64,000 nucleotides of DNA from Hyperoplus lanceolatus (lineage: Eukaryota; Chordata; Actinopteri; Uranoscopiformes; Ammodytidae), in contig CM049404.1 in the NCBI GenBank assembly GCA_026929865.2, forward strand, positions 9,497,501 through 9,561,500, in the 5' to 3' direction. Positions 4,130-4,996 of the stretch are shown here, in pieces. The number at the start of each line of letters is the position of its first letter. Positions within the stretch are counted from its first letter, which is position 1. The translations under genes and the position numbers were made by a program. The notes beneath the pieces are model-generated. The model did no database searches. It saw only the letters and a program-made list of their open reading frames with translations, and was not told the DNA's origin.

Positions 4130-4136
4130 CTGCAGG

Positions 4137-4244
4137 ACACACACACACACACACACACACACACACACACACACACACACACACACACACACACACACAC
4201 ACACACACACACACACACACACACACACACACACACACACACAC
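4137..4244 (-). repeat. (CA)54 microsatellite inside the pdyn coding intron
   Basis: An uninterrupted (AC)n on the plus strand reads (GT)n in the pdyn pre-mRNA and ends 7 bases before the acceptor CTGCAG. It takes the place of a normal polypyrimidine tract. Confidence 0.98.
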
Positions 4245-4706
4245 AAAAGAGTGTGAGCATACACAATGGCGTCAACTAGAATCAGCTGAACACATTTCTT
4301 TTGACTGTGAATAAGGCGTCAGTTTGAACAAATTAGACCTCTGTCTGATACAGAGTGCCCTCCTTACAAGTCGTTTTAAAGTAGTTGTATTGGTACTAAA
4401 GAGTAAAGGATGTCATGATTTTACAGAACCCATATCCAACCCACATGTTAGTTACATTTACATTACTTATCCGCCTGGCGTATCATTAACTTTAGGAATT
4501 ATGAAATTCAAATTGTAAGAAATACAAAAAATGAAAATTCAACCACATTTCACTTTAGGCTTTTGCTCCTTATGTCGGATTTTTACAAAGATAAAACAAG
4601 AGATGCTCAATAAAGACTTCAACAAGCAGTGATTAATCTCCATTTCTCTCTCTCTCTCTCTCTGCATGTCATAATGGACTGTGTATGTATAATCGTTGTC
4701 TCTTAC

Positions 4707-4829
4707 CAGGCTGCTGAAAGCGGCGTCGGCGCTGAGGATATGCTGCGCGCATTTCTGACAAAGTGAAGAGCAATCTGCGTGGATGGAGGGCGGCAAGCTC
4801 AACATCAGCACCAGGACATACCACTCCAT
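4707..4829 (-). CDS. pdyn: Prodynorphin, first coding exon (signal peptide and first three cysteines)
   Basis: ATG at 4829-4827 opens 41 codons: MEWYVLVLMLSLPPSIHA is a signal peptide, followed by D-C-S-S-L-C-Q-K-C (Cys20, 24, 27). The pattern matches the start of mammalian prodynorphin (DC-x3-C-x2-C). The exon ends in CTG before the donor GTAAGA (4706-4701), phase 0, and joins the last exon to restore the second half of the cysteine motif (C-x3-C-x6-C). The upstream acceptor GTGTCAG ends at 4844, so the exon would start at 4843 with 14 nt of 5' UTR. The coding intron (4130-4706) is only 577 bp and is largely a microsatellite. Confidence 0.92.
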
Positions 4830-4846
4830 TCTTCACCAGATCCCTG

Positions 4847-4996
4847 ACACACACACACACACACACACACACACACACACACACACACACACACACACAC
4901 ACACACACACACACACACACACACACACACACACACACACACACACACACACACACACACACACACACACACACACACACACACACACACACACAC
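4847..4996 (-). repeat. (CA)75 microsatellite directly before the first pdyn coding exon
   Basis: 150 bases of pure (AC)n on the plus strand, (GT)n in the transcript. It ends 1 base before the CAG acceptor of the signal-peptide exon (AG at 4845-4844). Confidence 0.98.

What the first reader, a model, noticed from the sequence alone, without database searches (positions are those of the whole stretch)
4130..4996. Both prodynorphin 3' splice sites are preceded by long (UG)n tracts
In the transcript, (UG)54 ends 7 nt before the acceptor of the opioid-peptide exon and (UG)75 ends 1 nt before the acceptor of the signal-peptide exon. Neither has an ordinary polypyrimidine tract. UG repeats next to acceptors bind TDP-43 and CELF proteins, and in CFTR they cause exon skipping. 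Two such sites in one neuropeptide gene could make its splicing depend on repeat length, so the gene may vary in output between individuals or alleles.
Basis: partly seen in the sequence, partly recalled or inferred. Interest (0 to 1): 0.72.

Follow-up and report, generated by a model that had tools for sequence, protein, structure and literature searches.

The report
Long UG repeats before prodynorphin exons
A fish gene for opioid peptides has two very long UG repeats beside exon starts, a layout already known from fish introns and human CFTR, so it is a good test case for repeat-dependent splicing rather than a new mechanism.

Summary
The repeats are real: minus-strand (TG)54.5 (4245-4137) and (TG)75 (4996-4847) in a fish-type prodynorphin gene (236 codons). 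The opioid-exon acceptor (AG 4131-4130) is firm: it keeps the frame and the Pfam opioid domain spans the junction. The signal-exon acceptor (AG 4845-4844) is plausible but unproven; AG 5065 scores higher and would make (UG)75 a 5'UTR repeat. "No ordinary polypyrimidine tract" is half right: branch-point-like motifs and pyrimidines lie directly upstream of each tract. UG tracts at fish 3' splice sites are a described class (Lin et al. 2016, known here only through citing papers): they pair with AC repeats at the intron's 5' end and replace U2AF2. Here no (AC)n partner exists, only a 12-nt alternating stretch near the donor of intron B that folding pairs with the tract (7 of 240 shuffles reach it). 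In that model pairing saturates near 12 repeats, against the length-dependence proposed. The opioid exon is the last coding exon, so failure there means intron retention or cryptic acceptors, with no dynorphins. RNA, polymorphism, related-fish and genome-wide data could not be reached. Real, above chance, but a new member of a known kind.

The parts
3542..4129 (-). Prodynorphin coding exon with four YGGF opioid cores, 196 codons including stop; last coding exon
   Evidence: translation; last three of six N-terminal cysteines
4130..4136 (-). CCTGCAG spacer with acceptor AG (4131-4130) of the opioid exon; first AG after the tract
   Evidence: of five acceptors translated only this one keeps the dynorphins
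4137..4245 (-). Perfect (TG)54.5 tract in intron B
   Evidence: Tandem Repeats Finder, 100% match
4246..4259 (-). Branch-point-like TGCTCAC (A at 4254) followed by ACTCTTT directly upstream of the tract
   Evidence: loose consensus scan, one of 7 candidates in 155 nt; not experimentally shown
4680..4691 (-). TATACATACACA, alternating stretch at intron B nt 16-27, predicted to pair with the UG tract
   Evidence: folding; 7 of 240 shuffles reach the observed pairing
4705..4706 (-). Donor GT of intron B (CTG|GTAAGA, 9.0 bits), phase 0, intron 577 nt
4707..4829 (-). Start codon, signal peptide and first three conserved cysteines, 41 codons
   Evidence: Pfam PF01160 match at residues 19-53 spans the junction after residue 41
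4844..4846 (-). CAG, proposed acceptor of the signal-peptide exon (5'UTR intron); unproven
   Evidence: rival AGs at 5065 and 5297
4847..4996 (-). Perfect (TG)75 tract; in intron A, or in the 5'UTR exon if AG 5065 is used
   Evidence: Tandem Repeats Finder, 100% match
4997..5043 (-). Branch-point-like GACTAAC, GACTCAT, GGTTGAT and pyrimidine-rich sequence upstream of (TG)75
   Evidence: loose consensus scan
5460..5465 (-). TATA-like GATAAA, with an inverted CCAAT (ATTGG) at 5524; possible promoter
   Evidence: motif scan; weak

Best explanation
A fish prodynorphin gene whose 3' splice sites carry expanded TG microsatellites between a branch point with a short pyrimidine stretch and the AG. For intron B the position of the tract at the acceptor is shown by frame and protein domain; for intron A it is likely only. 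Inferred mechanism: U2 recognises a distant branch point (A 4254, about 124 nt from the AG in intron B), no AG intervenes, and the first AG after the tract is used. The UG tract is tolerated or helped, in intron B perhaps by pairing with a 12-nt alternating stretch just inside the 5' splice site, a degenerate relative of the fish AC-GU bridge. TDP-43-type proteins or pUG quadruplexes would compete for the same tract. The origin is most simply slippage at a T/G-rich splice site in a microsatellite-rich region.
For: Tracts and frame. AG-free stretch before the acceptors 144 nt (intron B) and 184 nt (intron A), the acceptor being the first AG after each tract. Bridge: the MFE fold pairs intron B nt 16-27 with the tract; 32 pairs of nt 7-60 with the tract, reached by 7 of 240 shuffles, mean 10.0, and by 1 of 60 in an earlier run. 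A 12-nt alternating run in the first 54 nt after the donor hexamer occurs in 0.56% of 5000 shuffles and 1.7% of 3680 window stretches. Pairing probability of nt 16-27 with the tract is 0.95-0.98 from 12 repeats up. Fish class: passages of PMC6093180, PMC9198270, PMC12962679.
Against: No (AC)n repeat partner. The 12-nt stretch with (UG)12 gives -14.4 kcal/mol against -19.8 for (AC)6 with (UG)12 and -58.5 for (AC)15 with (UG)30. The bridge p-value (about 3%) is for one intron and is not corrected for choices made; total pairing to the tract and MFE are reached by 12 and 8 of 240 shuffles. Seven assumed starts of intron A gave no convincing pairing (p5 reached by 4, 19, 25, 10, 48, 48, 48 of 48 shuffles). 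RNAfold ignores pUG folds and proteins. Higher-scoring AGs exist. No RNA evidence, no related fish.
Confidence: 0.5

Rival explanations
1. Length-dependent silencers, as in CFTR: TDP-43 (and hnRNP A1) bind the UG tracts and lower use of the acceptors, so allele length tunes dynorphin output; skipping of the signal-peptide exon or retention of intron B results.
For: TDP-43 site size 12 nt on UG repeats (passages of preprint PMC12697283), so room for 9 and 12 molecules; CFTR (TG)m precedent (passages of PMC12171016); human association of TARDBP binding with GT repeat length (passages of preprint PMC13174678).
Against: Fish carry thousands of intronic UG tracts (passage of PMC12962679); the opioid exon is the last coding exon; no length or RNA data.
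Confidence: 0.2
2. Neutral microsatellite expansion: both tracts arose by slippage at T/G-rich splice sites and have no effect on splicing.
For: Ten perfect TG/CA arrays of 24 bp or more in 64 kb, eight of them away from prodynorphin; branch-point-like motifs and pyrimidines kept upstream.
Against: Both proposed introns are affected, right at the AG; a branch point over 120 nt from the AG is unusual (average about 25 nt in human, passage of PMC6093180).
Confidence: 0.22
3. The (UG)75 is not intronic: the acceptor is AG 5065 (or another upstream AG) and the repeat lies in the 5'UTR, where it could act on translation or mRNA fate. (Concerns one tract; can hold together with any of the others for intron B.)
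For: AG 5065 scores 4.7 bits and AG 5297 8.1, against 3.8 for 4844 (recalled matrix); an exon from 5064 carries no upstream ATG.
Against: An exon from 5296 would carry six upstream ATGs; a 5'UTR intron ending close to the ATG is usual in opioid precursor genes (recalled, not looked up).
Confidence: 0.2
4. pUG quadruplexes form on the tracts and block or pace 3' splice-site recognition.
For: (GU)11.5 or longer folds into a pUG quadruplex that TDP-43 does not bind (passages of PMC12962679 and preprint PMC12697283); room for 4 and 6 units of 24 nt.
Against: Folding is slow (half-life about 15 min in 150 mM potassium) and TDP-43 binding prevents it (PMC12697283); no evidence here.
Confidence: 0.08

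Closest known systems
Teleost AC-GU introns (Lin et al. 2016, Genome Res; paper not held; known through passages of PMC6093180, PMC9198270, PMC12962679)
   Same: (GU)n upstream of a fish 3' splice site; predicted pairing with the 5' end of the intron
   Different: No complementary (AC)n repeat; only a 12-nt alternating partner in intron B, none established in intron A
CFTR intron 8 (TG)m(T)n and exon 9 skipping by TDP-43 and hnRNP A1 (passages of PMC12171016)
   Same: UG repeat just upstream of an acceptor; TDP-43 site; probably length-polymorphic (inferred here)
   Different: 54 and 75 units against the TG11 and TG13 named there; the repeats lie almost at the AG, with pyrimidines upstream rather than a T tract downstream; one exon is the last coding exon
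Human PDYN 68-bp VNTR and signal-peptide-less PDYN transcripts (passages of PMC8201134)
   Same: A tandem repeat in the prodynorphin gene with variable copy number; transcripts lacking the signal peptide exist
   Different: The human repeat lies upstream of the main transcription starts and has another unit; human variants arise by other splicing or start sites
Exons with long AG exclusion zones and distant branch points (Gooding et al. 2006, seen only as a reference; zones described in passages of PMC6093180)
   Same: AG-free 144 and 184 nt before the acceptors
   Different: Here the distance is made by a microsatellite

Membership tests
Prodynorphin (PDYN) | Opioid-precursor N-terminal cysteine domain and a single coding intron | tested here: met
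   Pfam PF01160 E 2.4e-05, 24.8 bits over cutoff 23.5; three cysteines each side of the junction; single coding intron in opioid genes per passages of PMC2865548
[quoted passage not shown]
   KR-YGGFLRKF, KR-YGGFMRRIRPKL, KR-YGGFLRRH plus a KR-YGGFIKR core; assignment of the peptide names is recalled; no homologue alignment was made
Teleost AC-GU introns | (GU)n next to the 3' splice site | tested here: met
   (intron B firm; intron A only if acceptor 4844 is right)
Teleost AC-GU introns | complementary (AC)n repeat next to the 5' splice site | tested here: not met
   Intron B has only TATACATACACA, no AC repeat. Intron A donor unknown
Teleost AC-GU introns | bridging structure between intron ends | tested here: inconclusive
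   7 of 240 shuffles reach the observed pairing in intron B; best of seven intron A starts 4 of 48
Teleost AC-GU introns | splicing independent of U2AF2 | not testable with these tools
   needs U2AF2 depletion
CFTR-type UG silencer | UG repeat upstream of the acceptor | tested here: met
   (same proviso for intron A)
CFTR-type UG silencer | longer repeat lowers exon inclusion through TDP-43 | not testable with these tools
   needs genotypes, RNA and tardbp loss

The most novel reading that the evidence does not exclude
A neuropeptide gene with two serial UG-repeat gates: the first controls whether the signal-peptide exon is kept (if skipped, the first ATG of the opioid exon, Met 108 in frame, gives a 129-residue signal-less prodynorphin with three opioid cores, reminiscent of human nuclear forms), the second controls whether the opioid exon is joined at all; both lengths vary between fish and tune kappa-opioid tone.
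Probability: 0.06. Interest if true: 0.8.

Novelty: new member of a known kind. Interest (0 to 1): 0.36.

Why it matters
If the tracts act on splicing, this small gene is a clean natural case in which to separate two opposed models of UG repeats at 3' splice sites: a TDP-43 silencer predicts a graded effect of length, an intron bridge predicts saturation above about 12 repeats. The output is a peptide with a behavioural read-out. If they do not act, it shows how far a 3' splice site can be stretched by a microsatellite in fish.

Tried and rejected
Related fish: by their descriptions the sequence collections on hand hold prokaryotes, viruses, plasmids and metagenomes, so I ran no search of them, and conservation is untested.

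CFTR-like skipping of the opioid exon: rejected as worded, since it is the last coding exon (polyadenylation signals follow the stop at 182 and 200 nt). Cryptic acceptors for intron B (4396, 4305, 4276, 4122) all lose the dynorphins in translation. A known structured RNA or tRNA in the window: none at Rfam's gathering score, none by ARAGORN. Solved-structure and NCBIfam searches of the precursor gave nothing relevant: 2 chains at E 0.23 and 0.25, 3 families below their cutoffs. My first splice of the coding exons was off and was corrected. In one search the intron A start labelled 'donor 5337' began three bases before its GT, so that row is not an exact intron. The splice-site weight matrix and branch-point consensus are recalled and human-like, not fish-trained. 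Lin et al. 2016 is not held.

Full report
The finding concerns the minus strand of 3542-5000. The coding exons join to a 236-residue precursor: signal peptide and three cysteines (4829-4707), then three more cysteines and four YGGF cores (4129-3542). Pfam finds the opioid-neuropeptide domain (PF01160, 24.8 bits, cutoff 23.5) across the junction. The cores, one of them YGGFMRRIRPKL, make it prodynorphin (peptide names recalled); opioid genes share a single coding intron (passages of PMC2865548). So intron B, 4706-4130, 577 nt, phase 0, is firm although no transcript was available. The neighbours that I identified are a gmeb2-like last exon (name recalled; no Pfam match) and an stk35-like kinase (Pfam kinase domain; gene name recalled).

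The repeats are exact: 54.5 and 75 units at 100% match. They end 7 and 3 nt before the exons. In both cases the acceptor is the first AG after the tract, and the AG-free stretch before it is 144 nt (intron B) and 184 nt (intron A). Just upstream of the first tract lie TGCTCAC and ACTCTTTT; upstream of the second, GACTAAC, GACTCAT and GGTTGAT with pyrimidine-rich sequence. I therefore read the tracts as expansions between branch point and AG, not as replacements of all 3' signals. The scan is loose (7 candidates in 155 nt, 10 in 144 nt) and its consensus is recalled and human-like.

The signal-exon acceptor is less certain. AG 4844 scores 3.8 bits, AG 5065 4.7, AG 5297 8.1, and AG 4755 inside the signal exon 9.1; in intron B, AG 4396 scores 7.0 against 6.2 for AG 4130. 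An exon from 5296 would carry six upstream ATGs, one from 5064 none. If 5065 is used, (UG)75 is in the 5'UTR. The first exon and its donor could not be placed.

What is known: PMC6093180 (passage), citing Lin et al. 2016, states that in zebrafish about 10% of introns carry (GT)n upstream of the 3' splice site that pairs with (AC)n downstream of the 5' splice site, obviating U2AF; PMC9198270 says the same of dinucleotide repeats at opposite intron ends; PMC12962679 says fish have thousands of such UG tracts accompanied by CA repeats. I did not see the original. Intron B has no AC repeat. It does have TATACATACACA at intron nt 16-27; the minimum-energy fold pairs it with the tract and brings the two splice sites together. 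7 of 240 dinucleotide shuffles reach the 32 observed pairs (1 of 60); an alternating run of 12 near the donor occurs in 0.56% of 5000 shuffles and 1.7% of 3680 window stretches. Pairing probability is 0.24 at 6 repeats, 0.95 at 12 and 0.98 at 54. For intron A, seven assumed starts gave no convincing signal (lowest 4 of 48; one of the seven began three bases early). This is suggestive, not a demonstration, and the defining AC repeat was tested and not met, so I do not file the introns as AC-GU introns.

TDP-43 binds UG repeats with a 12-nt site, while pUG quadruplexes exclude it (passages of preprint PMC12697283). Room exists for 9 and 12 TDP-43 molecules or 4 and 6 quadruplexes. But no length, RNA or protein data exist here. 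The opioid exon is the last coding exon: retention of intron B gives a 96-residue product without dynorphins, and four of four rival acceptors tried also lose them. Skipping of the signal exon would leave Met 108 as the first ATG of the opioid exon, giving 129 residues with three cores. Human PDYN has truncated forms without signal peptide, of which T1 and T2 were targeted to the nucleus in cell models, and a 68-bp VNTR upstream of its main starts (passages of PMC8201134). These are leads, not results.

Verdict: real, ordered, above simple chance, but of a known kind. In print: the searches listed no title on UG repeats at prodynorphin splice sites; two searches listed 8 of 20 and 8 of 11 papers, and of all papers only the passages cited were read.

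Noticed in passing
window, arrays: 9 of 10 perfect TG/CA arrays of 24 bp or more read CA on the + strand (two-sided binomial 0.02); seven of the nine lie outside prodynorphin, whether in other genes was not determined.
   Followed up: partly
14467-15357 +: ORF with reverse-transcriptase (RVT_1) and ALKBH8_N matches, probably a LINE fragment.
   Followed up: no
39665-40240 and 42260-42999 +: Two ORFs with protein-kinase matches, stk35-like (name recalled); the second has an acceptor-like CAG ending at 42259 without a TG tract.
   Followed up: partly
534-1165 +: gmeb2-like last exon (name recalled) preceded by a C-rich tract, converging on prodynorphin.
   Followed up: partly
3986-4006 -: First opioid core reads YGGFIKR, with Ile where opioid cores usually have Met or Leu.
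   Followed up: no
4645-4663 -: A (GA)n run lies about 43 nt inside intron B, next to the putative bridge element.
   Followed up: no
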